64,000 nt of DNA from Bacteroidales bacterium (GTDB lineage Bacteria; Bacteroidota; Bacteroidia; Bacteroidales; UBA932): assembly GCA_017619675.1 (NCBI GenBank), contig JAFZRX010000016.1, positions 27,656 to 91,655 on the forward strand. The letters are read 5' to 3'. The position numbers and the translations under genes were made by a program. A model generated the notes under the pieces. The model did no database searches and had not been told where the DNA came from. It was given only the letters and a program-made list of their open reading frames with translations. Below are positions 33,301 through 47,180 of the stretch, piece by piece (positions within the stretch are counted from its first letter, which is position 1; each line of letters starts with the position of its first letter).

Positions 33301-34089
33301 ATGCCCAGAGTACGCCTTACAATGTTCGCCGAACTTCCGGAGCCGGAGGAGATAGACGTCGCCTCCCTCAGGGAGCAGTACGCATCGGGTGAGATAGACC
33401 TGATCTGCGTGCTGGGGCCCACCGCGTCAGGGAAGACGCGGTACGCGGTGGACCTGGCGCGGCAGATCCCCGGCGCGGAGATCATATCGGCGGATTCCCG
33501 CCAGGTATACCGCGGGATGGACATCGGCACCGGGAAAGACCTTGAAGAGTACGGGGAGATTCCTTATCATCTTATCGACATCGCCCCTGCGGGCTCCCGC
33601 TACAACGTATACCGCTACCAGAAGGATTTCGCCGACGCGTATCAGGACATCCGCTCCCGCGGATGCGTGCCCATACTCTGCGGCGGCACGGGCCTGTACA
33701 TAGAGGCCGCCACCTGCGGATACGATTTCTCCAAGGACGTCCCCCAGGTGGATCCCGCCCTGCTTCCCCACAAGACTTATTTCATTGGGACGCTGGTCTC
33801 CCGCGAGGAGAGGATAAGGCGCATAGACGCCCGCCTCAAGGAGCGTCTGGACAATGGGATGGCGGAGGAGATTCAGGGCCTGCTGGACAGCGGCGTGGCC
33901 GCGGAAGACCTGATTTATTACGGCCTGGAGTATAAATACGTAACCCAGTATGTGTTGGGCATACTGGATTACGGTCAGATGTTTACCTTGCTGTCAAACG
34001 CCATCCACCAGTTTGCCAAGAGGCAGATGACCTGGTTCCGCGGGATGGAAAGGGACGGCGTGCAGATTCACTGGACGCAGGTCCGCTAG
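33301..34089 (+). CDS. tRNA dimethylallyltransferase family protein, shortened form
   Basis: 262 residues from the ATG at 33301. MiaA adds an isopentenyl group to A37 of tRNA. GPTASGKT (39-46), SADSRQVYRGMDIGTGK (63-79), CGGTGLY (127-133) and KRQMTWFRG (240-248) are kept. Typical MiaA has about 300 or more residues; here the helical insert between CGGTGLY and the RIxxRL helix is nearly gone. Bacteroidota often have two MiaA copies, and this resembles the smaller one. Whether it has the usual substrate is uncertain. The stop overlaps the convergent gene by four bases (CTAG). Confidence 0.85.
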   Translation: MPRVRLTMFAELPEPEEIDVASLREQYASGEIDLICVLGPTASGKTRYAVDLARQIPGAEIISADSRQVYRGMDIGTGKDLEEYGEIPYHLIDIAPAGSRYNVYRYQKDFADAYQDIRSRGCVPILCGGTGLYIEAATCGYDFSKDVPQVDPALLPHKTYFIGTLVSREERIRRIDARLKERLDNGMAEEIQGLLDSGVAAEDLIYYGLEYKYVTQYVLGILDYGQMFTLLSNAIHQFAKRQMTWFRGMERDGVQIHWTQVR

Positions 34090-35090
34090 TATTTGATGTG
34101 GACAGACTTGCAGAAGTCTATGGCCGCCTGGTTTCCGCTCTTGGCCGCAAGCGCCATGTAATACTCCGTCTTTCCAATGTTTATGCTTGCGTACTGAGTG
34201 GCAAGGTCGTGCAGGGTGTAGCCCAGGGTTTCGTCCTGGAACTTGCTCTTCTTGATCTCCTTCTCCGAGGTGTTGAAAAGCTTGCAGTATGCGGCTACGG
34301 CCTTCTCATAGTACTCTATGGATTTCTTGGGGTCTTTCTTCTTGGCGTAGCAGTCTCCCATGGCGTCGTACATCCAGTAATCCAGCACCATGGCGCGGCC
34401 CAGGTTCTCGTCTATCCACTTGCTGCACAGGTCGATGCATTCGTCATTCCGTCCCAGGATGTTCAGGACCATGGCGTACTGGTACTCGTTGTACATGTTG
34501 AGCTCGCCCATCTCGTCCAGGGTGTCGAAGCAGTGTGCGGCGGCCTGGTAATCCTTGGCGTCCAGATACTCCTGGGCCGCCATCTTGAGGGCGTCGGCCT
34601 CCTCCAGGCCTGTTTCCGGCTTGGGAGCCTCTTCCTCCATCACGGTGCCGTCGTATACCAGGAGCCTGTCGCCGTCCTGGACAACGTCTCCAAAGCAGTC
34701 GAAGGCGGAGTTGCCCACTATGAGCGGCACGTTCTGCTTGGTGAGGACGAATGCGGGGAGGTTCTGCACTATGATGTTGCCTATCCTCAGGTTCCTGATC
34801 ACGAAGGAGCCGGCCTTCACGGTTGATCCGTCGGGCATCTTGAGCACGGTGACGCCGTTGACGTCAGCATTCTCAATGTAGCCGTTCTCGTAGAGGAACA
34901 GGTAGGTGGTGGAAGACACGCTGGCGAACCATGTCTCGGCCGCGTAGAATGTCTTGACGCCCACGCCGTTGACGGTGGCGTCAATGGTATACCTTCCGTC
35001 CGACTGCGGGTTGAGTTTTATTACGTTCTGGGCGCTGAGGCTTAACGTGCAGAGCATCGCCGCCAGTATAATAGCTAAGTGCCTTCTCAT
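34086..35090 (-). CDS. Secreted protein with degenerate retropepsin-like domain and TPR repeats
   Basis: 334 residues with signal peptide MRRHLAIILAAMLCTLSLSAQ. Residues about 30-145 read like a clan AA aspartic protease half (YTIDATVNGVGVKTFYAAET, then LIVGNSAFDCFGD), but the catalytic D-T/S-G is replaced by A-A-E-T. Residues about 160-330 are TPR-like (ALKMAAQEYLDAKDYQAAAH, KKSIEYYEKAVAAY). It is probably a non-catalytic periplasmic binding protein. It lies 11 bases after metK in the same direction. I know no named gene for it. Confidence 0.75.
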   Translation of the reverse strand: MRRHLAIILAAMLCTLSLSAQNVIKLNPQSDGRYTIDATVNGVGVKTFYAAETWFASVSSTTYLFLYENGYIENADVNGVTVLKMPDGSTVKAGSFVIRNLRIGNIIVQNLPAFVLTKQNVPLIVGNSAFDCFGDVVQDGDRLLVYDGTVMEEEAPKPETGLEEADALKMAAQEYLDAKDYQAAAHCFDTLDEMGELNMYNEYQYAMVLNILGRNDECIDLCSKWIDENLGRAMVLDYWMYDAMGDCYAKKKDPKKSIEYYEKAVAAYCKLFNTSEKEIKKSKFQDETLGYTLHDLATQYASINIGKTEYYMALAAKSGNQAAIDFCKSVHIKY

Positions 35091-35101
35091 ATATGTGGTC
35101 T

Positions 35102-36328
35102 TTAAATGTTAAATGCTTCCTTGATGGCGTCCACCATGTCCAGTTTCTCCCATCCGAAGAACTGTATGCCGTCCTTCACGTAAGGGTCCTTGCCAAAGTG
35201 CCCGTATGCGGCCGTTGGCTGGTAAATAGGGTTCTTGAGGCCGAACTTCTCGATAATTGCGGCGGGGCGGAGGTCGAACATCGCGCTGATTTTTTCCGCG
35301 ATGTGCCCGTCGTCAAGGCCCGGCGCCGCTGTCCCGTAGGTATTGATGTAGAAACTTACAGGCTTCGCCACGCCGATGGCGTATGCCAGCTGGACCTCGA
35401 TCTCCTCCGCGACTCCGGCGGCCACGAGGTTCTTGGCAATGTAGCGGGCGGCGTAGGCGCCGCTGCGGTCAATCTTGGAAGGGTCCTTGCCTGAAAAGGC
35501 GCCTCCGCCGTGCGCGCCCTTGCCTCCGTAGGTATCCACGATAATCTTGCGCCCGGTGAGGCCGGTGTCCCCGTGGGGACCGCCGATCACGAACTTTCCG
35601 GTGGGGTTCACCAGCAGTTCGAAGCCCTTGTCGAAGAGCGCCGCCGTCTGCGCGGGAAGGCTTTGGATGAGCCTTGGGATAAGGATGTCGCGCACGTCGG
35701 CGGTAATCTTGTCATGCATGGCCTGGTCAGTGTCGAACTCGTCGTGCTGGGTGGAGAGGACTATGGTATGTACCCGTACTGGCCTGTGGGTTTCCCCGTC
35801 GTACTCTATGGTGAACTGTGATTTTGCGTCCGGCCGCAGGTACGGCATGAGGGCGGGTTCGCCCTTGCGTATGTCGGTAAGTATCTGTAGTGTCCTGTGC
35901 GCCAGGGAGATAGGGAGGGGCATGTATTCCTGCGTGTCCTTGCAGGCGTAGCCGAACATCATTCCCTGGTCTCCCGCGCCCTGCTCCGCGGGATCAGTGC
36001 GCACCACGCCCCGGTTGATGTCCGGGCTCTGCTCGTGGATTGCGGAGAGCACGCCGCAGGAATTGCCGTCGAACATATAGTCCGCCCTGTCATAGCCAAT
36101 GGAGCAGATGACCTTGCGGGCGGTCTGCTGGACGTCTACGTAGGCCTTTGTGGTGATCTCGCCTCCTATCACCACCAGGCCGGTGGAACAGAAGGTTTCG
36201 CAGGCCACCTTTGACTCGGGGTCCTGCCTCAGGCATTCGTCCAGGATTGCATCGGAAATCTGGTCCGCCACCTTGTCCGGGTGGCCCTCAGAGACTGACT
36301 CTGAAGTGAATAGATAGTTCTTTTTCAT
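35102..36328 (-). CDS. metK: S-adenosylmethionine synthetase
   Basis: 408 residues, slightly longer than the E. coli enzyme. It makes SAM from ATP and methionine. [20 protein letters not shown] (10-29), [32 protein letters not shown] and [19 protein letters not shown] are all intact. The mRNA leader is about 55 bases from the TATATTTG box at 36390-36397; no clear SAM riboswitch fold is seen in it. Confidence 0.98.
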
Positions 36329-36389
36329 TTTTTAGCATTTTTTGACGTGGTTGCAAGCATTCAAATCTGTCCACGTGTGTTTAACAGTA

Positions 36390-36397
36390 CAAATATA
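36390..36397 (-). promoter_or_regulatory. TATATTTG -7 box for metK
   Basis: CAAATATA on plus reads TATATTTG on minus. A perfect 12-bp palindrome GTTGTTAACAAC at 36408-36419 lies where the -33 region would be and could be an operator. Confidence 0.6.
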
Positions 36398-36445
36398 CTA
36401 CAATTTTGTTGTTAACAACCCCTGTTGATATCTTGTTAATAATTT

Positions 36446-36486
36446 TAAATGGGTAAAACGATTTTAATTTTTTAGATACCCATTTA
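36446..36486. promoter_or_regulatory. 10-bp inverted repeat upstream of the TonB receptor promoter, operator candidate
   Basis: TAAATGGGTA (36446-36455) and TACCCATTTA (36477-36486) are perfect reverse complements with a 21-base AT-rich spacer. The centres are 31 bp apart, about three helix turns. The right arm ends 5 bases before the TAATTTTG box at 36492. Confidence 0.5.
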
Positions 36487-36491
36487 TGAAG

Positions 36492-36499
36492 TAATTTTG
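36492..36499 (+). promoter_or_regulatory. TAATTTTG -7 box for the TonB receptor gene
   Basis: Matches TAnnTTTG and lies 48 bases before the ATG at 36548. Confidence 0.55.
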
Positions 36500-36547
36500 C
36501 TCGGTTAAACAGATATTTATTTTCAACATCATAAACTATTCTAACAA

Positions 36548-39500
36548 ATGAAACGTTTCTTGCTCGCTTTCGCGACATTATTTGCCGGAGTTGCAGCCTT
36601 CGCACAGGTTACAACCTCCAGCATGAGCGGACAGATTGCAGATGAATTCGGCGATCCCCTCATCGGCGCGGCAGTCGTTGCCGTACACGAGCCGTCGGGA
36701 ACCCAGTACTATGCAATCACCAACAATGACGGTCGCTACACCATCACCGGTATGCGCTCCGGAGGTCCCTACAACGTAGAGATTTCCTTCATAGGCATGG
36801 CTACCGAGGTGCACAATGACGTGACCCTCCTCCTGGGTGAGAACTACACCATCAACGCAACCCTCAAGAGCTCAGAGCTCCTGAACGAGGTTGTAGTTGT
36901 GGCATCCACATCCAAGTTCACCACCACAAAGACCGGTGCGGGAACCAACATCTCCCTTTCACAGATGGAGGAACTCCCTACCGTAAACCGCAGCATCCAG
37001 GATATCGCAAAGCTCTCTCCTTATTCAAACGGAATGAGCTTCGCAGGTGCTGACGGACGTTCCACCAACTTCACCGTTGACGGTGCCAACTTCAACAACA
37101 ACTTCGGTCTTTCCGACAGGCTCCCTGGAGGAGGAAACCCTATCTCCATGGACGCTTTCCAGGAGGTCCAGGTTGTGATCGCCCCTTACGACGTGCGCCA
37201 GACCAACTTCATCGGCGCCGGCGTGAACGCCATCACCAAGTCCGGTACCAACACCGTTAAGGGAACGGCCTACACTTACTACTACAACAACAAGATGCGC
37301 GGTGTCATCGGTCCTGACAAGGAGAAGATCGCCAGGCTCGACGAGGACCAGAAGAACGTTTACGGATTCTCCGTGGGCGGTCCTATCATCAAGAACAAGC
37401 TCTTCTTCTTCCTGAATGGTGAGTACACTGTTTCTCCTTCCTCAATGAACCAGTGGAGAGGCTCCACCGACGGAGTTGCGGATCCCAAGAAGTACATCTC
37501 CAGGACAAAGCTCTCAGACCTTGAGGCCGTTTCAAAGTATCTGAAGGACACTTACGGATATGACACCGGCTCATGGACCAACTATCCTGGAACGGAGACC
37601 AACAAGAAGTTCCTTGTCCGTCTCGACTGGAACATCAACAACAACAACCGTCTTGCCCTTCGTTACAACTACACCCAGAACCTTTACTGGCAGGGAACCA
37701 ACGGTTCTTCTTCAAATGCAGGCTCACGCGCTTCAGGCAACCGTCTGTCACAGTACGGTATGGCTTACGTGAACTCTTGCTACAATGCACAGAACAACGT
37801 AAACACCTGGTCACTTGACCTCAACAGCCGCATAGGCGAGACAATGCACAACCAGTTCCTGACCACCTTCACGATGATTTCCGATATCCGCGGATCCACT
37901 TCTTCAGAGTTCCCGTTCATCGACATCCTTGACGGTACCGCAGATACTGCAGGAACGATCATGCCTTACATCTCCGCAGGTTACGAGCTCTTTACCTACA
38001 ACAACGGTGTCTACAACAACACCCTCACCGTAAAGGATGACTTCACACTGGACCTTGGCAACCACCACTTCCTGGTAGGTCTCAGCTATGAGCATCAGTT
38101 CGCAAACAACGCGTATATGCGTAACGGAACAGGTTACTACCGTTACAAGAGCCTCGAGGACTTCTACAACCAGGCTGCTCCTGAGACAGTCTGCCTCACC
38201 TACGGTTACAACGGCAACCTCAACCCTACCGCACAGATTACCTTCAACCAGTTCGGTGCATACCTGCAGGACGAGTGGTCAATCACCAAGAACTTCAAGC
38301 TTACCTACGGTGCGCGCTTTGACCTTCTGGCATTTGACGAGAAGGACATCATGACCAACAACGCCATCAAGGCCCTTGACTACGGCGGAAAGCACGTTGA
38401 CACAGGTGTATGGCCTGCAAACCACGTGACAACTTCTCCACGTGTGGGCTTCTCCTGGGATGTGTTCGGAGACAAGACTTTGACTATCCGTGGAGGCGGC
38501 GGCCTCTTCTCAAGGCTTCCTTCACTGGTGTTCTTCACCAACATGCCTACCAACTCCAACATGATCCAGAACGTGACTTCGATCACCACCACATGGAAGG
38601 GTAAGAACAGCACTCCGGATCCTCTCCTCGCCCAGTTCGCAGGTCCTATCATCACTGACAAGGCCGCCCTCCTGGACAAGATGAACAGCCTGGATCCTAC
38701 CAGGTTCCCCAAGACCATCGATCCTTCTAAGGGTGTCGTAGGAAGCGAGGTTGACGGAGTTGACCCCAACTTCAAGATCCCTACAACCGCAAAGGTTTCA
38801 CTGGCGTTCGACTATCAGCTTCCCGTAAGCTTCCCTCTCACTGTAACTGCCGAGGGTATCTTCAACAAGACCATCTACGGAGTAAGGCTCACCAACTACA
38901 ACATCATGCCTTCAGACAACTGGGACAGGATGCCGGGCGCAGACAACCGTCTCATCTACCCTGCTTCTTACAAGTACTATCCTAAGACAAACGCATTCGT
39001 CCTCACCAACACAAGGGAAGGATACGGCTACTCCGCAAACGTAACCGTCAATGCCCAGCCGTTGGAGAACCTCAGTGTAATGGTGGCTTACACCCGCACA
39101 GAGTCCAAGGAGATCACCGGTATGCCCGGTAGCGCCGCTTCCTCCGCATACACCTCCCTGTACACCGTGAACGGACCTGAGTTCGCTACACTCCAGAGGT
39201 CTCAGTATGTAGTTCCTGACCGTCTCATCGGTTCCATCAACTGGACCAACAGGACAAAGATCGGCTTCGACACCCACGTATCACTCATGTACGAAGGCTA
39301 CTCCTCCAACGGATACTCCTTCATGTATGACGCTGACATCAACGGCGACGGATCCGCATTCGACCTCATCTACATCCCCAACACACCGGACGAGCTCAAG
39401 TGGGCTTCAGTTGACGACATGCAGAATTTCTGGAACTTCGTTCAGCAGGATCCTTATCTCCTGAGCCACAAGGGCCAGTACGCAGAGGCTTACGCCGCAC

Positions 39501-39817
39501 GCGCACCTTGGGTTCACCACTTCGACCTCCGCGTCGCACAGGACTTCCAGTTCAAGACCGGCAAGAACGTACACAAGTTCCAGTTCTCAGTCGACTTCCT
39601 GAACTTCAACAACCTGTTCAACCCCAAGTGGGGTGTTCCCAGCATCCTCGACTGCAACAGCGGCAAGATTCTCCACTGCACCAACGCAGAGTCAATCAGC
39701 TCTACAGTCGCTCCTATTTATTCATTCTCCGGCAACAGCGACCACACCTACAGGTATTCTTCTTCAATCTACAATACCTGGCAGATTCAGCTCGGCCTCC
39801 GTTATATGTTCAACTAA
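36548..39817 (+). CDS. TonB-dependent outer membrane receptor, Oar-like
   Basis: 1089 residues. Signal peptide 1-20, then a carboxypeptidase-regulatory-like domain (about 25-110: SGQIADEFGDPLIGAAVVAV), plug domain (about 125-250: SIQDIAKLSPYSNG, STNFTVDGANFNNNFG) and a large beta barrel to the C-terminal LGLRYMFN. It lacks a SusD partner, so it is closer to the Oar group than to SusC. Its barrel codons are biased to frequent codons, suggesting strong expression. The next gene is a lipoprotein with BACON and OB-like parts, then two nucleases, so nucleic acid fragments or cofactors are possible cargo; this is inference. Confidence 0.92.
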   Translation: MKRFLLAFATLFAGVAAFAQVTTSSMSGQIADEFGDPLIGAAVVAVHEPSGTQYYAITNNDGRYTITGMRSGGPYNVEISFIGMATEVHNDVTLLLGENYTINATLKSSELLNEVVVVASTSKFTTTKTGAGTNISLSQMEELPTVNRSIQDIAKLSPYSNGMSFAGADGRSTNFTVDGANFNNNFGLSDRLPGGGNPISMDAFQEVQVVIAPYDVRQTNFIGAGVNAITKSGTNTVKGTAYTYYYNNKMRGVIGPDKEKIARLDEDQKNVYGFSVGGPIIKNKLFFFLNGEYTVSPSSMNQWRGSTDGVADPKKYISRTKLSDLEAVSKYLKDTYGYDTGSWTNYPGTETNKKFLVRLDWNINNNNRLALRYNYTQNLYWQGTNGSSSNAGSRASGNRLSQYGMAYVNSCYNAQNNVNTWSLDLNSRIGETMHNQFLTTFTMISDIRGSTSSEFPFIDILDGTADTAGTIMPYISAGYELFTYNNGVYNNTLTVKDDFTLDLGNHHFLVGLSYEHQFANNAYMRNGTGYYRYKSLEDFYNQAAPETVCLTYGYNGNLNPTAQITFNQFGAYLQDEWSITKNFKLTYGARFDLLAFDEKDIMTNNAIKALDYGGKHVDTGVWPANHVTTSPRVGFSWDVFGDKTLTIRGGGGLFSRLPSLVFFTNMPTNSNMIQNVTSITTTWKGKNSTPDPLLAQFAGPIITDKAALLDKMNSLDPTRFPKTIDPSKGVVGSEVDGVDPNFKIPTTAKVSLAFDYQLPVSFPLTVTAEGIFNKTIYGVRLTNYNIMPSDNWDRMPGADNRLIYPASYKYYPKTNAFVLTNTREGYGYSANVTVNAQPLENLSVMVAYTRTESKEITGMPGSAASSAYTSLYTVNGPEFATLQRSQYVVPDRLIGSINWTNRTKIGFDTHVSLMYEGYSSNGYSFMYDADINGDGSAFDLIYIPNTPDELKWASVDDMQNFWNFVQQDPYLLSHKGQYAEAYAARAPWVHHFDLRVAQDFQFKTGKNVHKFQFSVDFLNFNNLFNPKWGVPSILDCNSGKILHCTNAESISSTVAPIYSFSGNSDHTYRYSSSIYNTWQIQLGLRYMFN

Positions 39818-39837
39818 ACCAGTGAGGAAAAGAGATT

Positions 39838-42183
39838 ATGAAAAAGATATTTAAAGCAATATTCGCAATAGCCGCCGGCATCACCCTGTTCGCATCCTGC
39901 CAGCAGGCCGGTGACGTGCTCGCCCTCGCACTTTCCGCAGACAACACCGCCATCACTTTCGATGCGGCCAATCCTCAGGAAGTGAGCGTGAACCTTTCCG
40001 CAGACGGCGACTGGTATGTCTATGCTCCTGACTGGATCACAGTTAATCCTTCTCACGGAACCGGAAACACCACCGTCAAGATCAGCGCACAGAAGAACCT
40101 TGACCAGTGGAATGAGGAGAACGCCCCCAGGGCTGACGTAGTTGCATTCTGCGGCGCAGGGGACAAGAGATTCTCCATCAACGTAAACCAGAAGGGAGAG
40201 GCCGGTCTGGACGCCACCAGGTACTACAGGCAGATTACCTCCACTTCCGTCATGGATCCTGACGTGACCTATCTTATCGTGTTCAACCTTGGAGGAGACC
40301 TCCAGGCGGCCATGAACATCGGTTGCGGCAAGGATGACAACACCTACGCTTACGGTTACACAACCAAGGTTACCCCTGACGCTGACGGTGTCATTGTCAT
40401 GACAAACGGTTCCCTCAGCCACAAGCTTGAGCCTGTGGAGGGTGGATATGCCATCAAGCAGCCTAACGGCGCCTACATCTACCAGAGCGCAAGCTACGCC
40501 AACTTCTATCTTACCACTGACAAGAGCAAGGCCAGCACATGGGAGCTCACTTTCAATGACAAGGGAGAGGCTGAACTCAAGAACAAATCCGCAGGCGATA
40601 GGATCCTCCAGTACGACAACGTACAGTACAAGGACTTCGGCTCATGGCCTACAATCAACAGCGGATATGTCCTGCCTATCATCTACATGGACCAGGCAGA
40701 ACCTACCGGAGAGGAACTTTCCGCTCCTGAGGAGACATATGTTCTCGCAAGCGCGACTTCCGCAGTCCTCCCTGTTTCTTCCAACAGGACCTGGAAGGTA
40801 AGGAACCATGATTCATGGGTTAAGGATTTCACTCCTTCAGGAACAGAAAACGGCAATATTGAGATTACCCTTGACGCCAACACCGGCGCAGCCCGCACCG
40901 CTCAGTTCCAGATCATCGGTGAGACCACCAACATGACCGTCAAGCTGATCCAGGCCGCTCCTATGAAGTCTGTCAAGGACCTCAATGACTGGTGCAAGCT
41001 TACAAAGACAGGCGCAGATTACGATGCAACCCTCAACGGTGCCACAGTTTCCTATGTAAACGGCAACAACGCCTTCATCGAGGACGCTACCGGCGGAATC
41101 CTGCTTTACAAGAGCGGTCACGGCCTCAAGGTGGGTGACAGCTTTACCGGAAGGGTTACCGGAAAGGGTACAATGTACGGTGGAGCTCCTGAGCTCACTG
41201 CTTGGGATGCTTCAGAGGCCGTCAAGACTACTGCCGAGGCTCCTTGCACTGAGATCACCCTCGCTGACCTGTACAAGAACTTTGACAAGTATATAAGCTG
41301 CGTCCTCAAGATCAAGGGCGTAAAGGTTACTGACGGAATAGCATCAGGTGACAGAAGCGGAAAGATCAGCCAGGGCACTGACTCGATCGACCTTTATGAC
41401 AAGACCAAGAAGGTTGTGATCACTGCCAATTCAGAGGGTGACCTCGTTGCCATCCCTTGCTACAACGGAACCAAGAAGCAGCTTGGCGTTTGGGAGAGCT
41501 CACAGTTCACTGCAACCAAGATTGGAGGAGCCATCACGGTACCTGCAACCCTGGAGGTTGAGAACGGCGGCACTGCAAAACTGAACGCAACCGCCAATAG
41601 CGGCGCTCCTATCACCTATACTTCTTCAGACGAGACCGTAGCTACCGTAAGTGCGGACGGAACCGTTACCGGACTCAAGACCGGTGAGGCTACCATCACA
41701 ATGACGGCTCCTGCTGTTGAGGGCTATACCGCAGCAGAGGCAACCTGCAAGGTTGTCGTTGCCGCCCCGCTTCCTACCATCATGGTTACCCAGGATGACG
41801 TTCCTTCCAAGTATGGCGACGATGTTGAGATTACAATTGGGGGCGTAACCTTCGTTGCAAATCAGCTCGCCTGCTATGCAAAGGGTACCGGCAAAAAGGA
41901 AGGCCTCCAGTTCAAGAAGCAGGTTGGTTACCTTGCAAACAAGACCCCTCTTGGAAAGAAGATCACAAAGATCGTCATCACCAAGGGAGACGGTTTCTAT
42001 GCTACCAACTATGAGCTTACGGCCGGAACTGCCGAGAATCCTGAGACAGTGATTACCGGAACGTCAACAGAGACATCCACTACATATGACCTTTCTGGCG
42101 GCAACTACACATTCTTTAAGCTTGCCAACACATCGACATATGCAGGATATCTGGATACAATAGAAATCAAATACGCAGAGTAA
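39838..42183 (+). CDS. BACON / OB-fold / Ig-like (BIG2) surface lipoprotein
   Basis: 781 residues. The lipobox is FASC (C21). Residues about 35-120 resemble a BACON domain (ADGDWYVYAPDWITVNPSHG). About 285-375 is a second such domain (SNRTWKVRNHDSWVKDFTP). About 380-570 reads like the OB-fold found beside secreted nucleases (NNAFIEDATGGILLYKSGHG, KVGDSFTGRVTGKGTMYGGA). About 575-640 is a BIG2 Ig-like domain (ITYTSSDETVATVSADGTV, GEATITM). The C-terminal 130 residues form an unrecognised beta-rich module. No catalytic site is seen. It follows the TonB receptor by 20 bases and probably binds ligand at the surface. Confidence 0.8.
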   Translation: MKKIFKAIFAIAAGITLFASCQQAGDVLALALSADNTAITFDAANPQEVSVNLSADGDWYVYAPDWITVNPSHGTGNTTVKISAQKNLDQWNEENAPRADVVAFCGAGDKRFSINVNQKGEAGLDATRYYRQITSTSVMDPDVTYLIVFNLGGDLQAAMNIGCGKDDNTYAYGYTTKVTPDADGVIVMTNGSLSHKLEPVEGGYAIKQPNGAYIYQSASYANFYLTTDKSKASTWELTFNDKGEAELKNKSAGDRILQYDNVQYKDFGSWPTINSGYVLPIIYMDQAEPTGEELSAPEETYVLASATSAVLPVSSNRTWKVRNHDSWVKDFTPSGTENGNIEITLDANTGAARTAQFQIIGETTNMTVKLIQAAPMKSVKDLNDWCKLTKTGADYDATLNGATVSYVNGNNAFIEDATGGILLYKSGHGLKVGDSFTGRVTGKGTMYGGAPELTAWDASEAVKTTAEAPCTEITLADLYKNFDKYISCVLKIKGVKVTDGIASGDRSGKISQGTDSIDLYDKTKKVVITANSEGDLVAIPCYNGTKKQLGVWESSQFTATKIGGAITVPATLEVENGGTAKLNATANSGAPITYTSSDETVATVSADGTVTGLKTGEATITMTAPAVEGYTAAEATCKVVVAAPLPTIMVTQDDVPSKYGDDVEITIGGVTFVANQLACYAKGTGKKEGLQFKKQVGYLANKTPLGKKITKIVITKGDGFYATNYELTAGTAENPETVITGTSTETSTTYDLSGGNYTFFKLANTSTYAGYLDTIEIKYAE

Positions 42184-42203
42184 AAAGTTAATCTGTAATA
42201 ATC

Positions 42204-42243
42204 AAAAGGCGCAGGGTGTCGATGCTTTGCGCCTTTTATTTTT
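42204..42243 (+). terminator. Rho-independent terminator after the BACON lipoprotein gene
   Basis: AAAAGGCGCA (42204-42213) pairs with TGCGCCTTTT (42228-42237) and is followed by ATTTTT. It lies 21 bases after the stop and before the promoter of the nuclease gene. Confidence 0.8.
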
Positions 42244-42256
42244 AAGCATATTTATC

Positions 42257-42264
42257 TATATTTG
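42257..42264 (+). promoter_or_regulatory. TATATTTG -7 box for the nuclease operon
   Basis: Exact TAnnTTTG match, 23 bases from the ATG at 42288. The nuclease, phosphatase-like and peptidase genes downstream have gaps of 10 bases or less and probably share it. Confidence 0.65.
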
Positions 42265-42287
42265 AAGATACAATATACTTACCCGAT

Positions 42288-44075
42288 ATGAAACTGAAAC
42301 ATTTGATATTAGCTGTGCTGGCTGCGTCAGCGCTCGTGGCCTGTTCGGAACCGGAACCCAATAAGGATCCTCAGCAGGAGTCGGCGTCCGTGACGGTTTC
42401 CCCTTCAAGCCTGTCCTTTGCGGCTGGAGCTGAGACCAAGGACGTCACAGTTACCACCAACTGCAACTGGACGGCCGAGTCCGATGCGGACTGGGCCACG
42501 GTGAACATCACCAGCGGAGGCGTCTCCAAGAGCGGCGCCGTGGTGAAGGTTACCGCCCAGGCCAACAAAGGCGCCGCGCGTAACGCTACGGTGACCTTTA
42601 CAGGAAAAGGCAACAACACCGTCACCGCAAAGCTCAGCATCTCGCAGGAGGCTTATGAAGCGCCTCAGGAACTGAAGCCGGCTTCGACATCCATGACTAT
42701 CCTGTCCAAGGGCGAGACCAAGTCCCTGTCCTTCAAGGCTACCGGGGACTGGACGGCTGCATCGAATGTCCCGTGGATTACGGTAAGTCCCGTTTCCGGC
42801 CAGGGATCAGCCAACACCCAGGTGCTCACCGTCACCGTGGCGGCCAATACTGATGACGCGCGTACCGGCAAGGTGACCTTCACCATGGGAAGCCTCACTG
42901 CGGAAGTCACCGTCGCGCAACAGGGAGCGCCTAAGTTCGAGACACTGACCATAGCCCAGTTCATTGACAAGGCGGCTGGCACCGGAGAATGGTACAGGCT
43001 TACCGGTATCATCACCCAGATCTGCGACAACACCGCCAAGGCTTACGGCAACTTCTACATCAAGGACGATACCGGCGAGGTATTCGTATATGGAATGACC
43101 AAGGATTACAGCGAGAATCTCAATGACCAGTCATTCTCCCAGATAGGCCTCAAGGAAGGTGACGAACTCACCTTCATAACCCAGCGCTCAGAGTATCACG
43201 GAGAGCCCCAGGGCGGCGGTAACACACAGCCTGCATACTATGAGTCCCACGTTCCGCATCCAACCCCTGCGAGGGTTTATTCGGACTACAAGGCCGACAG
43301 TTCTTCCGAGCCATGGCTGGAACTCCCCGCAACTTCAGCCGATGACGGCCACAGTTTCCTGCACCATACAATGTACATAGGAAGCAACGAGACCCGCAGT
43401 TTCTCCATGTACTGGGATTACCAGAACATGGTGGCCCGCTGGGTGGCTTATCCTCTTTACAGGAAGGCCTGGGGATACGGAACCAGGACCGACCAGTGGG
43501 GACTGGACCCTCTGCTCAAGAGCAGCGAGCAGCCGATACTCAACAGGACCTACACATCTTCCGACGGCCAGTCATATGACCGCGGCCATCAGATCCCGTC
43601 TGCGGACCGCCTATGCTACGAGGCCAACGTAAAGACCTTCTACTGGACCAACATGACTCCTCAGTTGAACGAACTGAACGGTGCCCTCTGGGCCAACCTG
43701 GAGCAGAACGTCCGCGAATGGTCATGGCCTGATTCCCACGAGACCGACACCCTCTACGTGGTTACCGGTTGCCTCGTGGACGACAGCACCACCATTGTGA
43801 AGGACAACGACGGCAAGAAGGTTACGGTTCCGACGCATTATTACAAAGCTCTCCTGAGGGTTTACCAGGGCAATTATTCCGCCATCGGATTTTACCTCGA
43901 GCACAGGAAATATGACAACAACAAGGTTGACAAGAGCATAGCCGTATCCATTGACGAACTCGAGACCCTCACCGGGGAAAACTTCTTCCACAACCTTCCT
44001 GACGCCATAGAAAGCGCCGTGGAGGCCAAGGATCCAAAGACAGACCAATGGTGGTGGGACAACATGTTAAAGTGA
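42288..44075 (+). CDS. Secreted lipoprotein DNA/RNA non-specific endonuclease with BACON and OB domains
   Basis: 595 residues. Lipobox LVAC (C19); two BACON-like domains (about 35-125 and 130-215: NCNWTAESDADWATVNITSG, TGDWTAASNVPWITVSPVSG); an OB-like domain (about 220-310: ICDNTAKAYGNFYIKDDTG); and a C-terminal beta-beta-alpha-metal nuclease. The catalytic signature is YDRGHQIPSADR with H434, and the metal-binding Asn is N464 in LNELNGALWANLE. This family cuts DNA and RNA without sequence preference. It is likely displayed on the surface or in the periplasm. It is followed 10 bases later by an endonuclease/exonuclease/phosphatase gene. Confidence 0.92.
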   Translation: MKLKHLILAVLAASALVACSEPEPNKDPQQESASVTVSPSSLSFAAGAETKDVTVTTNCNWTAESDADWATVNITSGGVSKSGAVVKVTAQANKGAARNATVTFTGKGNNTVTAKLSISQEAYEAPQELKPASTSMTILSKGETKSLSFKATGDWTAASNVPWITVSPVSGQGSANTQVLTVTVAANTDDARTGKVTFTMGSLTAEVTVAQQGAPKFETLTIAQFIDKAAGTGEWYRLTGIITQICDNTAKAYGNFYIKDDTGEVFVYGMTKDYSENLNDQSFSQIGLKEGDELTFITQRSEYHGEPQGGGNTQPAYYESHVPHPTPARVYSDYKADSSSEPWLELPATSADDGHSFLHHTMYIGSNETRSFSMYWDYQNMVARWVAYPLYRKAWGYGTRTDQWGLDPLLKSSEQPILNRTYTSSDGQSYDRGHQIPSADRLCYEANVKTFYWTNMTPQLNELNGALWANLEQNVREWSWPDSHETDTLYVVTGCLVDDSTTIVKDNDGKKVTVPTHYYKALLRVYQGNYSAIGFYLEHRKYDNNKVDKSIAVSIDELETLTGENFFHNLPDAIESAVEAKDPKTDQWWWDNMLK

Positions 44076-44085
44076 GAATAAGGGT

Positions 44086-45195
44086 ATGAAAAGACTTTTA
44101 AAGAGCCTCCTTTCCCTGGTAATAGCAATTACCCTGGGTACGCTCATACTGTTTGTCCTCAGAAGCCTCACACAGGTAAAGCCGTCATATCCTGACGGCA
44201 GCCTGGTGATAGGCTTCTACAACCTGGAGAACCTCTTTGACACAGTAGACGATCCCCGTATCAACGACGCCGCTTTCCTGCCTGACGGCGAGAACAAGTG
44301 GACGGAGGACAAGTATCAGAAGAAACTCCACAACATGGCATCGGCCATAAAGGCCATGGCTGAGTATAACGGCCAGTACCACGCCATACTTGGCGTTGCT
44401 GAGGTGGAGAACTACGGCGCCCTGTCAGACCTCCTGGCGCAGCCGGAGCTGCAGGATTCCGGATACAAATGTATCCTGGAGGAGGGTGGCGACGGCCGCG
44501 GCATTGACGTGGGCCTCATCTACAGGCCGGACGTCTTCCAGGTCCAGCAGGTGAAGTCCATCCCTTACAATTTCAGGGATTCCCGCATAGAGTTCTATAT
44601 GACCCGCGAGGAACAGAGGGCCTTCAGCACCCGCGACGTGCTCATGGTGCGCGGCCTGCTACAGGGCGAGCCTTTCGCCGTATATGTAGGTCATCTTCCT
44701 TCACGTGTGAACGACAAGCCCGCGGACCTGCGCAACAGGGGAGCGGAAATCATCTACAACGACGCCATGGAACTCCAGAAGAAGTATCCCGGCATAAAGA
44801 TAGCCGTCATGGGCGACATGAATGACGACCCCACTGACGAGAGCATGACGGACTTCCTCATGGGACGCGAGAGCATCGACGGCCTCACGGACAAGGATTT
44901 CTTCAATCCGTTCCTGTCCATGCTCAAGGCCGGCTACGGCTCCATGGAGTACCGCGGCCAGTGGCAGATATTCGACCAGATCCTTGTGAACAATGCCCTG
45001 GCCAACGCTCCCAAGGGAGGCCTGAAGATCCAGAAGATAGAGGCCGGTAAGTATTACGGCAAGGTCTTCAACGCGGATTTCCTCACCCAGCAGGACGGCC
45101 GTTACGCCGGCACCCCTTACAGGACCTTCTCCAACGGAGAGTTCATAAACGGTTACAGTGACCATTATCCAACATTCATCATAGTATCCAAATGA
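44086..45195 (+). CDS. Endonuclease/exonuclease/phosphatase family protein, membrane-anchored
   Basis: 369 residues. An N-terminal hydrophobic segment (about 9-26) anchors or exports it. EEP motifs are IGFYNLENLFD (42-52), GVAEVENYG (catalytic E), HLPSR, AVMGDMNDDPTDE and GYSDHYP at the C-terminus. The family includes DNases, phosphodiesterases and lipid phosphatases. Next to the DRGH nuclease it most likely trims oligonucleotides, but the substrate is inferred. Its TGA overlaps the dcp ATG (ATGA). Confidence 0.9.
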   Translation: MKRLLKSLLSLVIAITLGTLILFVLRSLTQVKPSYPDGSLVIGFYNLENLFDTVDDPRINDAAFLPDGENKWTEDKYQKKLHNMASAIKAMAEYNGQYHAILGVAEVENYGALSDLLAQPELQDSGYKCILEEGGDGRGIDVGLIYRPDVFQVQQVKSIPYNFRDSRIEFYMTREEQRAFSTRDVLMVRGLLQGEPFAVYVGHLPSRVNDKPADLRNRGAEIIYNDAMELQKKYPGIKIAVMGDMNDDPTDESMTDFLMGRESIDGLTDKDFFNPFLSMLKAGYGSMEYRGQWQIFDQILVNNALANAPKGGLKIQKIEAGKYYGKVFNADFLTQQDGRYAGTPYRTFSNGEFINGYSDHYPTFIIVSK

Positions 45196-47180
45196 AAAAA
45201 CTTTTATTGATTGTGACAGCAGCAGTTGCTCTCGCCTCATGTGCGACAAAAGAACAGAATCCTTTCCTGCAGGAGTGGGATACCCCTTATGGAATCCCGC
45301 CTTATGACAAGATAAAGATCGAGCATTACATGCCGGCTATCAAGGCAGGAATAGCCCAGCACGAGGCTGAGATCCAGGCAATAATAGACAATCCCGCCGC
45401 CCCTACCTTCGAGAATACAGTAGCGGCCCTGGAACTTTCAGGAGACATCCTCACCAAGGTGATGGGAGTGCTCTACAACGTGGCTGAGACGGAGAATTCT
45501 CCGGAACTGGAGGCAGTGGTGGAGGAAGCCACCCCGCTCCAGTCCGAGCACAGCGACAACATCTACATGAACAAGAAGCTCTACGAGAGGGTTGCCGCCA
45601 TCTACAACGCGGACCAGAGCGGCCTCACCCGCGAGCAGCAGATGGTCCTCAAGAAACTCTACGAGGCCTTTGAGCGCAACGGTATCGGCCTGAGCGACGC
45701 AGAGCAGGAGGAACTCCGCAAGATCAACACAGAGACATCGGTGGTCAGCAACAAGCTGGGCACCAACCTCCTGGCGGAGAACAACGCCTTCAAGGAGGAG
45801 TTCGGCATCTCCGTATCGGCATATCCTACCGCAATGACCACCACCGAGGACCGCGCCCTGCGCGAGCGCATGTTCAAGGCGTATTCATCAAGGGGACACA
45901 ACGGCAACGAGTATGACAACCGCGAGCTTTTCCTGAAACTCATGGACCTCCGCACCCGCAAGGCCAAGATCATGGGCTATGACAATTCAGCGGACTTCCT
46001 CCTTGCAAACAAGATGGCTCACGACCACGAGACCGTGGACGAGTTCCTGGACGGCATAATGAAGGCCGCCGTGGCCCGTGCCAAGGAAGAGGTAGCCGAG
46101 ATGGAGAAGATAGCAGGCTTCAAGATCGAGCCCTGGGACTGGTGGTACTATTCAGAGAAAGTGCGCCAGCAGAAGTATGCCCTTGACGAGGACATGACCA
46201 AGCCGTACTTTGAGGTGAACAACGTCCGCAAGGGCGTCTTCCTGGCCGCCAAGACCCTCTACGGCATCAATATCGAGGAGATCTCCGGAGTTCCAAAATA
46301 CAACCCCGAGGTGCTCACCTACAAGGTTACCGACGAGAACGGCAACTTCCTTGGAATCTTCACAAGCGACTATTTCCCGCGCTCCAGCAAGAGGGGAGGC
46401 GCCTGGATGAACAACGTGCGCGACCAGTATTACGATGCTGACGGAAAAGAGGTCCGCCCCATTATCTGCAACGTTGCAAACTTCACTTCTCCTGACGAGA
46501 ACGGCGTAGCCCTCCTCACAATTGACGAGGTGGAGACCGCTTTCCACGAGTTCGGACACGCCCTTCACGGACTCCTCACCAAGTGCCACTATCCTTCAGT
46601 AAGCGGCACCAGCGTGACCCGCGACTTTGTGGAGACCTTCTCCCAGTTCAACGAGAACTGGGCTTTCCAGCCCGAACTGCTGGCCCAGTACGCAAAGCAC
46701 TACCAGACAGGCGAGGTGATTCCCCAGGAACTGGTGGACAAGATCATCAACTCTTCCAAGTTCAACCAGGGATTTGCCACCACCGAGCTCTGCGCCGCTT
46801 CTATCCTTGACATGAAATGGCACGAGCTGTCCAGCATAGAGGGAATCGACATAGACGAGTTTGAGGCAAAGGTATGCAAGGAGATGGGTCTCATAGACGA
46901 GATCATTCCGCGCTACCGCACCTCCTACTTCAACCACATCTTCTCCGGCGGCTACAGCGCAGGTTACTACGGATATCTGTGGGCCGAGGTCATTGACAAG
47001 GACGCTTTCGCGGCCTTCGAGGAATCCCCCAACGGAGTATGGGACAAGGAACTTGCAAAGAAATTCAAGGAGACCTTCCTGGAGAAGGGAGGTTCCGAGG
47101 AGCCTATGGTCCTCTACGTGAAGTTCCGCGGAAGGGAGCCTCAGTCAGAGCCGTTCCTGAGGGGAAGGGGACTTCTTTAG
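45192..47180 (+). CDS. M3 family peptidyl-dipeptidase (Dcp-like) lipoprotein
   Basis: 662 residues. Lipobox LASC (C17), then the M3 helical fold with HEFGHALHG (zinc ligands H452 and H456, catalytic E453) and the downstream glutamate in TRDFVETFSQFNENW. Dcp removes dipeptides from peptide C-termini. The lipoprotein signal places it outside the cytoplasm. It could help use peptides from nucleoprotein or be general. Its stop overlaps the convergent RNase R stop (TTAG). Confidence 0.93.
   Translation: MKKLLLIVTAAVALASCATKEQNPFLQEWDTPYGIPPYDKIKIEHYMPAIKAGIAQHEAEIQAIIDNPAAPTFENTVAALELSGDILTKVMGVLYNVAETENSPELEAVVEEATPLQSEHSDNIYMNKKLYERVAAIYNADQSGLTREQQMVLKKLYEAFERNGIGLSDAEQEELRKINTETSVVSNKLGTNLLAENNAFKEEFGISVSAYPTAMTTTEDRALRERMFKAYSSRGHNGNEYDNRELFLKLMDLRTRKAKIMGYDNSADFLLANKMAHDHETVDEFLDGIMKAAVARAKEEVAEMEKIAGFKIEPWDWWYYSEKVRQQKYALDEDMTKPYFEVNNVRKGVFLAAKTLYGINIEEISGVPKYNPEVLTYKVTDENGNFLGIFTSDYFPRSSKRGGAWMNNVRDQYYDADGKEVRPIICNVANFTSPDENGVALLTIDEVETAFHEFGHALHGLLTKCHYPSVSGTSVTRDFVETFSQFNENWAFQPELLAQYAKHYQTGEVIPQELVDKIINSSKFNQGFATTELCAASILDMKWHELSSIEGIDIDEFEAKVCKEMGLIDEIIPRYRTSYFNHIFSGGYSAGYYGYLWAEVIDKDAFAAFEESPNGVWDKELAKKFKETFLEKGGSEEPMVLYVKFRGREPQSEPFLRGRGLL

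What the first reader, a model, noticed from the sequence alone, without database searches (positions are those of the whole stretch)
36548..47180. Candidate extracellular nucleic acid (nucleoprotein) use locus
Seen directly: an Oar-like TonB receptor, a BACON/OB-like/Ig-like lipoprotein, a lipoprotein with two BACON domains, an OB-like domain and a DRGH nuclease, an exported EEP phosphodiesterase and a lipoprotein M3 peptidase, all in one direction. Known: DRGH enzymes cut DNA and RNA, EEP enzymes trim or dephosphorylate, TonB receptors import large ligands. Inference: this is a scavenging unit that binds nucleic acid at the surface by OB folds, cuts it and imports the pieces. It resembles a polysaccharide utilization locus in layout but for nucleic acids. 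It may be two transcripts, since a terminator lies at 42204.
Basis: partly seen in the sequence, partly recalled or inferred. Interest (0 to 1): 0.7.

Follow-up and report, generated by a model that had tools for sequence, protein, structure and literature searches.

The report
Likely nucleic-acid capture and import locus
A set of neighbouring genes in rumen and gut bacteria probably lets the cell grip DNA or RNA at its surface, cut it and take the pieces in, and in most of the near relatives examined it is joined to a gene pair that resembles one another bacterium needs for taking up DNA.

Summary
Observation confirmed; interpretation largely supported. The host is a Candidatus Cryptobacteroides MAG. 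The gene order is not found only here: nuclease directly precedes EEP in 72 of the 80 nearest named loci, fetched by nuclease similarity alone. In 54 of the 80 the run continues into a second TonB receptor (TBDT2), in 52 then into a DUF5689 lipoprotein. A DUF5689 protein and its neighbouring CarboxypepD_reg beta-barrel are the pair without which Riemerella anatipestifer is not transformed (PMC8459023). TBDT2-DUF5689 also occurs in other families of the class, with a divergent EEP in 18 of 30 picked loci. The window's EEP belongs to that subfamily, although TBDT2 and DUF5689 were not found in the window genome. So this is a reduced version of a genus-wide nucleic-acid capture, cutting and import locus, in two transcripts: [Oar receptor, OB/BACON lipoprotein] and [nuclease, EEP, M3]. 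Nucleic acid as substrate is well supported; import and nutritional use are inferred. Boldest lead: EEP as the unidentified nuclease of Bacteroidota DNA uptake.

The parts
36492..36499 (+). TAATTTTG, possible -7 promoter element of transcript 1
   Evidence: matches TANNTTTG (consensus recalled); no shuffled control for this motif
36548..39817 (+). Oar-like TonB-dependent receptor (OAR), 1089 aa, signal peptide, CarboxypepD_reg plus beta-barrel
   Evidence: divergent metK next to it also in many relatives
39838..42183 (+). P2 lipoprotein, 781 aa: two BACON, OB/DUF5689-like module, Big_2
   Evidence: (lipobox Cys)
40960..41337 (+). OB/DUF5689-like module of P2 (residues 375-500)
   Evidence: hhalign 91.9; PDB 9sf8, 3.2e-4; 86.1 to the DUF5689 profile of other families, but 9.5 to that of the genus
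42204..42237 (+). intrinsic terminator, 15-pair stem, ends transcript 1
42257..42264 (+). TATATTTG, possible -7 promoter element of transcript 2
   Evidence: no shuffled control for this motif
42288..44075 (+). NUC: lipoprotein BACON-BACON-OB-Endonuclease_NS, 595 aa
42945..43250 (+). OB fold of NUC
43395..44003 (+). Endonuclease_NS catalytic domain (His434, Asn455, Glu472 invariant)
44086..45195 (+). EEP (PF19580) with N-terminal hydrophobic anchor; member of the TBDT2-linked EEP clade
45192..45195 (+). 4-base EEP/M3 overlap; the place where most of the 80 relatives carry TBDT2 and the DUF5689 lipoprotein
45192..47180 (+). M3 (Dcp-like) metallopeptidase lipoprotein, 662 aa; M3 copies mostly lack acidic residues after the lipobox

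Best explanation
The locus is a cell-surface system for capturing, cutting and importing nucleic acid, most likely to feed on it. Surface lipoproteins (P2, and the BACON-OB part of the nuclease) bind DNA or RNA through OB folds. The lipid-anchored DRGH nuclease (NUC) cuts it at the surface. The pieces pass the outer membrane through a TonB-dependent receptor: here the Oar-like receptor with P2 as its lipoprotein partner; in most of the near relatives also TBDT2 with a DUF5689 lipoprotein, which resembles a pair needed for DNA uptake in transformation. The exported EEP enzyme then trims or dephosphorylates the pieces. The M3 peptidase, of periplasmic type, removes bound peptide or serves peptide use in the same niche. 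Shown: gene content, catalytic residues, OB-fold kinship, conserved order and operon spacing, phylogeny of EEP. Inferred: surface location, binding, import, nutritional purpose.
For: Domains and catalytic residues; NUC is modelled with the NucA/Serratia nuclease fold. OB family matches ssDNA-binding RPA32 and reaches 7 copies in one neighbouring lipoprotein (L037, L061). Nuclease next to EEP in 40 of 49 genus genomes (counted by hand from the tables) and 72 of 80 named loci. Median gaps of 0-17 bases for OAR-LP, NUC-EEP, EEP-TBDT2, TBDT2-DUF5689, DUF5689-M3 and EEP-M3. EEP>TBDT2 54, TBDT2>DUF5689 52, DUF5689>M3 32 of 80. Of 26 TBDT2 frames over 600 aa from other families, all 26 have a genus TBDT2 as best hit at 26-40% identity over 817-1016 columns, with OAR far behind or absent; the DUF5689 proteins of genus and other families match at 2e-52. 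Deletion of either Riemerella gene abolishes transformation (PMC8459023); deletion of tonBA inhibits it without the iron defect seen for tonBB (PMC8383284). The window's EEP falls in the TBDT2-linked clade, 100/100, apart from 16 paralogues. Mean acidic residues after the lipobox: lipoproteins 2.15, NUC 1.69, DUF5689 2.19, M3 0.21.
Against: No growth, binding or expression data. TBDT2 and DUF5689 were not found in the window genome, so import there rests on the untested OAR-P2 pair. The Riemerella paper states that homologues of RA0C_RS04915 were found only in Flavobacteriaceae and that F. johnsoniae, with all the homologues, was not seen to be competent; I could not compare TBDT2 with the Riemerella protein directly. 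The same group reads the tonBA effect as perhaps one on nutrient transport. The Cryptobacteroides DUF5689 protein reaches only 50.7 of 475 bits for the NCBIfam lipoprotein family. BACON is generally thought to bind glycans or mucin (recalled), and one neighbouring lipoprotein carries a CBM_4_9 match. Conserved order within one genus is partly descent. No nucleoside transporter was searched. The AF2 model of P2 is poor (55.2).
Confidence: 0.6

Rival explanations
1. The locus serves natural transformation: intact DNA is pulled through TBDT2/DUF5689 (or OAR-P2), the nuclease makes ends or a single strand, and ComEC brings one strand in for recombination.
For: TBDT2-DUF5689 resembles the pair essential for transformation in Riemerella (PMC8459023); the nucleases EndA and NucM act in competence elsewhere (titles and abstract starts; that EndA is of the same metal-finger type is recalled). 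The window genome has a ComEC-like protein.
Against: ComEC-like open frames are short in 7 of 7 Cryptobacteroides examined (359-477 aa, four of them with one stop inside the match) against 488-771 aa in 23 of the 24 other matches (the other, 313 aa, begins at a contig end; one genome of the 31 had none); in the window genome Pfam finds only the Competence domain (358 aa). The pair was not found in the window genome. A secreted unspecific nuclease and OB arrays fit degradation better.
Confidence: 0.15
2. The surface parts dissolve or remodel extracellular DNA (biofilm matrix, host DNA traps) or disarm phage DNA, without import.
For: Secreted nucleases with biofilm and DNA-trap roles are common (titles and abstract starts).
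Against: Two kinds of TonB receptor, one with 6.5-base median spacing behind the EEP in most of the relatives, point to import.
Confidence: 0.11
3. A glycan or peptide utilisation locus in which the nuclease clears nucleic acid that masks the real substrate; BACON domains bind the glycan, M3 handles peptides.
For: BACON domains throughout; M3 is often kept; CBM_4_9 in a lipoprotein of L075.
Against: No glycoside hydrolase, SusC/SusD or polysaccharide lyase over its cut-off among the five window proteins or the ten proteins of relatives scanned; NUC, EEP and OB lipoproteins are the constant part.
Confidence: 0.11
4. A chance neighbourhood of unrelated exported genes.
For: The promoter/terminator totals alone are near expectation.
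Against: 72 of 80 loci keep NUC>EEP at nuclease identities of 37-79%; median gaps of 0-17 bases.
Confidence: 0.01

Closest known systems
Riemerella anatipestifer transformation pair RA0C_RS04915 / RA0C_RS04920 (PMC8459023)
   Same: Adjacent CarboxypepD_reg beta-barrel and DUF5689 protein; L160 of another family shows the same domains, DUF5017 included, and its receptor is a full-length homologue of Cryptobacteroides TBDT2
   Different: The Riemerella sequences were not held, so the link is by domains and adjacency; the paper found RA0C_RS04915 homologues only in Flavobacteriaceae; in Cryptobacteroides the pair is joined to NUC, OB lipoproteins, OAR and M3; the window genome lacks the pair
NucA / Serratia nuclease (Endonuclease_NS, PF01223)
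   Different: Lipid-anchored and fused to BACON and OB modules
ExeM/NucH-type extracellular nucleases (OB plus EEP)
   Same: OB and EEP parts used together; the P2 module matches the N-terminal part of PDB 9sf8, an EEP-domain protein
   Different: Here OB and EEP are on separate proteins; EEP scores 27.1 against a cut-off of 300 for NF033681
Polysaccharide utilization loci
   Same: TonB receptor plus surface lipoproteins plus anchored degrading enzyme
   Different: No SusC/SusD pair or glycan enzyme among the five proteins; substrate predicted to be nucleic acid
Oar (CarboxypepD_reg receptors)
   Same: Domain order and length
   Different: 48 OAR genes are followed by a BACON/OB lipoprotein at a median 17 bases (IQR 15-18); 10 others are followed by a second OAR

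Membership tests
Endonuclease_NS (PF01223) | Profile match above the curated cut-off | tested here: met
   135.5 bits against 23
Endonuclease_NS (PF01223) | Catalytic His, Asn, Glu conserved | tested here: met
   His434, Asn455, Glu472 invariant in 20 and in 34 rows; that these are the catalytic residues is recalled
Endonuclease_NS (PF01223) | Nuclease fold | tested here: met
EEP, Exo_endo_phos_3 (PF19580) | Profile match above cut-off | tested here: met
   285.2 bits against 27
TBDT2-linked EEP subfamily | Falls with EEPs beside TBDT2, apart from paralogues | tested here: met
   clade of 34 rows 100/100: 16 locus EEPs, 17 TBDT2-adjacent, 1 other from G074; 16 paralogues and 3 others outside
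DNA-uptake pair TBDT2 + DUF5689 | Both genes present in the window genome | tested here: not met
   0 DUF5689, 0 TBDT2; MAG 94.5% complete
DNA-uptake pair TBDT2 + DUF5689 | Pair present in the same run of genes in relatives | tested here: met
   TBDT2>DUF5689 in 52 of 80 named loci
DNA-uptake pair TBDT2 + DUF5689 | Sequence homology to the Riemerella proteins themselves | not tested
   sequences not held; link by domains and adjacency only
ExeM/NucH nuclease (NF033681) | Score above the curated cut-off | tested here: not met
   27.1 bits against 300
Polysaccharide utilization locus | SusC/SusD pair and carbohydrate-active enzymes | tested here: not met
   no such Pfam or NCBIfam match in the five proteins
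TonB-dependent receptor | N-terminal extension, plug and beta-barrel | tested here: met
   PF13620, PF25183 and PF00593 over their cut-offs; Plug 15.1 bits, under its cut-off of 23.9
Natural transformation system | DNA uptake and recombination | not testable with these tools
   needs experiment; the ComEC-like protein is reduced
Peptidase family M3 | Profile match and HExxH | tested here: met
   425.6 bits; HEFGH at 452

The most novel reading that the evidence does not exclude
EEP, TBDT2 and DUF5689 form a widespread Bacteroidota machine for moving nucleic acid across the outer membrane, in which EEP is the so far unidentified nuclease or phosphodiesterase. Cryptobacteroides turned it into a feeding system, a nucleic-acid counterpart of a PUL, by adding a surface nuclease, OB-fold lipoprotein arrays and an Oar receptor; the window's lineage then dropped TBDT2/DUF5689 and relies on OAR with P2, whose central module resembles DUF5689.
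Probability: 0.37. Interest if true: 0.82.

Novelty: new variant of a known kind. Interest (0 to 1): 0.62.

Why it matters
How Bacteroidota bring DNA across the outer membrane, and whether they feed on it, is largely open: the one genetic screen my searches found names a receptor pair but leaves the nuclease unidentified (PMC8459023). A conserved gene run that joins such a pair to two nuclease families and OB-fold lipoproteins gives named genes to test for both questions, in a genus whose MAGs come mostly from rumen and gut. It also suggests a ligand for DUF5689 proteins and for this branch of Oar-type receptors.

Tried and rejected
P2 structure: mean pLDDT 55.2, not used. Whole-model fold search of NUC says little on its OB and BACON parts, because the nuclease domain fills the list; the OB claim rests on sequence profiles. 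PDB search by single sequence for EEP, OAR and TBDT2 gave nothing. The genus DUF5689 profile against the two OB profiles gave 53.9 and 9.5; the DUF5689 profile from other families gave 86.1 to the P2 module but 10.6 to the NUC OB. The first greedy ORF calling hid several genes behind antisense ORFs; replaced by profile search of all stop-to-stop frames.

A TANNTTTG plus hairpin signature was clear in gaps over 60 bases between two lipoproteins (16 and 18 of 18) but weaker between lipoprotein and NUC (13 and 27 of 57); no shuffled control was run for either. The lipobox comparison has M3 as its only control; 44 of 121 NUC, 11 of 138 LP, 4 of 85 DUF5689 and 2 of 73 M3 frames had no recognised lipobox and were left out, and means are over distinct strings. 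mix the G-handle loci with the named loci, which share some genomes. Chance neighbourhood rejected. A literal PUL rejected.

The 30 loci of other families were picked for strong DUF5689 matches: 17 of the 59 matching genomes (118 searched), and 13 of the 16 matching other-family genomes; weaker matches, among them those of all genomes marked 'same phylum', were not fetched. Two of the 30 show no TBDT2 (L161, L181). Of the 28 with the pair, 18 have the divergent EEP by my test and 10 do not: L176, L182 and L183 end at a contig edge right upstream, L180 has an EEP near a split receptor, and L157, L162, L166, L167, L170 and L175 have room but no EEP beside TBDT2. The EEP tree used layout A loci with numbers divisible by three plus L096 and L098, had six layout B loci added by hand, and dropped loci of neither type and short frames; its 21 outside rows come from loci picked for DUF5689, two of them EEPs not next to TBDT2 (L162, and a second one in L168). 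In it 18 of 19 layout B rows form one starred set (99/87), L095 is not placed with them firmly, and only 20% of bootstrap trees make B one group.

Papers: PMC8459023 outline with abstract, found passages and sections 18 and 21; PMC8383284 found passages (part of the abstract included); PMC8289736 found passages; others only search listings with abstract starts. That the combined locus is not in print rests on the searches, open-licence papers only. Recalled, from no call: -7 consensus TANNTTTG, surface-export signal of acidic residues after the lipobox, EEP and nuclease catalytic positions, glycan binding of BACON, type of EndA.

Full report
What is there. The window lies in a 2.04 Mb, 94.5% complete MAG. 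The five reported genes are open and in place: OAR (TonB receptor), P2 (BACON/OB/Ig lipoprotein), NUC (BACON-BACON-OB-DRGH nuclease lipoprotein), EEP, M3. Upstream metK is divergent; downstream RNase R is convergent. Gaps are 20 bases (OAR-P2), 104 (P2-NUC), 10 (NUC-EEP) and -4 (EEP-M3). The 104-base gap holds a 15-pair terminator and a TATATTTG element, so two transcripts are likely: [OAR, P2] and [NUC, EEP, M3].

OB folds. In the OB family of NUC, 10 of 23 copies match the Pfam OB-fold family PF01336 (E up to 0.01), the window's own copy not; as a profile it matches archaeal RPA32 in the PDB at 1.8e-5. Related lipoproteins beside the nuclease carry up to seven copies. P2's central module is weaker: hhalign 91.9 to that OB family, PDB 9sf8 (a protein with an EEP domain) at 3.2e-4, DUF5689 in 3 of 6 members at low score, 86.1 to the DUF5689 profile from other families but 9.5 to that of the genus.

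Conservation inside the genus. Counting the tables by hand, the nuclease lies beside an EEP in 40 of 49 genus genomes, own included (in G019 1.1 kb apart); the nine without are G002, G010, G018, G021, G024, G029, G030, G043 and G046. Among 32 genomes of other families of the order, no listed pair is adjacent, though the weakest rows were not listed. In the 80 nearest named loci, found by the nuclease alone, the order is NUC>EEP in 72, LP>NUC in 69, EEP>TBDT2 in 54, TBDT2>DUF5689 in 52, DUF5689>M3 in 32 and EEP>M3 in 13; OAR lies in the upstream run in 28 (several loci end at contig ends). Nuclease identities run from 37 to 79%. Median gaps are 17 (OAR-LP), 14 (NUC-EEP), 6.5 (EEP-TBDT2), 5 (TBDT2-DUF5689), 6 (DUF5689-M3) and 0 (EEP-M3).

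Two layouts. Layout A, at its fullest: metK< OAR LP1 | LP2 NUC EEP TBDT2 DUF5689 M3. Layout B, the window's: metK< OAR LP | NUC(with OB) EEP M3. TBDT2 is a TonB receptor with CarboxypepD_reg; the next gene is a DUF5689 lipoprotein. In the window genome neither DUF5689 nor TBDT2 was found. In the EEP tree the outside rows, which come from loci picked for DUF5689, and the basal row L096 have TBDT2 in the locus, and 18 of 19 layout B rows group at 99/87, so loss is the simplest reading; but L095 stands apart, and one genome (G040) has contigs of both layouts, so ancient paralogy or MAG mixing is not excluded.

Link to DNA uptake. In Riemerella anatipestifer markerless deletion of RA0C_RS04915 (CarboxypepD_reg barrel) or RA0C_RS04920 (DUF5689, DUF5017) brings transformation below detection (PMC8459023); the authors propose that they bind DNA and carry it across the outer membrane and state that the protein that makes it single-stranded is unidentified. 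Deletion of tonBA inhibits transformation without the iron defect seen for tonBB, which the authors take as perhaps a nutrient effect (PMC8383284). In 30 loci from other families of the order and class, picked for strong DUF5689 matches, a TBDT2 homologue precedes DUF5689 in 28, and an EEP lies divergent within 300 bases in 18 (L180 also has an EEP near a split receptor, three end at contig edges, and six with room have none). None of the 30 has NUC, OAR or M3 in the stretch fetched. L160 shows the Riemerella domain make-up. The window's EEP and the TBDT2-adjacent EEPs form one clade (100/100) with 16 paralogues outside; the top EEPs of three genomes without DUF5689 (L208-L210) also fall outside. 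So the window's EEP is a member of the uptake-linked subfamily that seems to have outlived its partners. Against the link: the paper reports homologues of RA0C_RS04915 only in Flavobacteriaceae, and no competence in F. johnsoniae despite all homologues; the Riemerella sequences were not at hand.

Location. Mean acidic residues at +2 to +7 after the lipobox are 2.15 in BACON/OB lipoproteins, 1.69 in NUC, 2.19 in DUF5689 and 0.21 in M3. By the recalled surface-export rule the first three face outward and M3 the periplasm.

Mechanism, most likely. Surface OB lipoproteins grip nucleic acid, NUC cuts it, a TonB receptor imports the pieces, EEP trims them, and M3 deals with peptides. The window genome has a 5'-nucleotidase-type match that could act downstream. 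Substrate identity is well supported; import and purpose are inferred. Transformation is a live rival, but the ComEC-like frame is short in all seven Cryptobacteroides examined, which favours use as food.

Limits. MAG data; relatives of one genus are not independent; no expression, binding or growth data; the Riemerella proteins were not compared directly; literature searched only in open-licence papers.

Noticed in passing
L187:2319-3395 (window genome C5); also G008, G013, G016, G017, G042, G044: ComEC-like protein reduced: Pfam finds only the Competence domain in the 358 aa protein of the window genome; open frames of 7 of 7 Cryptobacteroides examined are 359-477 aa, 23 of 24 others 488-771 aa.
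   Followed up: partly
G053:C96:11892-14231: A second, paralogous EEP lies convergent and about 0.6 kb from the match to ComEC.
   Followed up: no
G001-G048: Many genus genomes hold 5-18 matches to the nuclease lipoprotein or its BACON/OB parts (the window genome one), so these modules have multiplied beyond this locus.
   Followed up: no
L056:10105-13567: Two genes with histidine-kinase domains sit between the OAR-LP pair and NUC-M3; a possible sensor of the substrate.
   Followed up: no
L129: NUC-EEP contig in a MAG named uncultured Elusimicrobium sp.; binning error or transfer.
   Followed up: no
36328-36548 and relatives: metK is divergent next to the Oar receptor in many loci of both layouts; L184 (G080) has metK beside the EEP-TBDT2 triad.
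   Followed up: partly
34086-35090 (-): Exported protein with a weak retropepsin-like match and TPR repeats beside metK.
   Followed up: no
50767-53004 (+): Lipoprotein with weak GH127/GH76 matches.
   Followed up: no
L165, L169: About 570 bases separate TBDT2 and DUF5689 there, room for a small gene, as the Riemerella paper reports for F. columnare.
   Followed up: no
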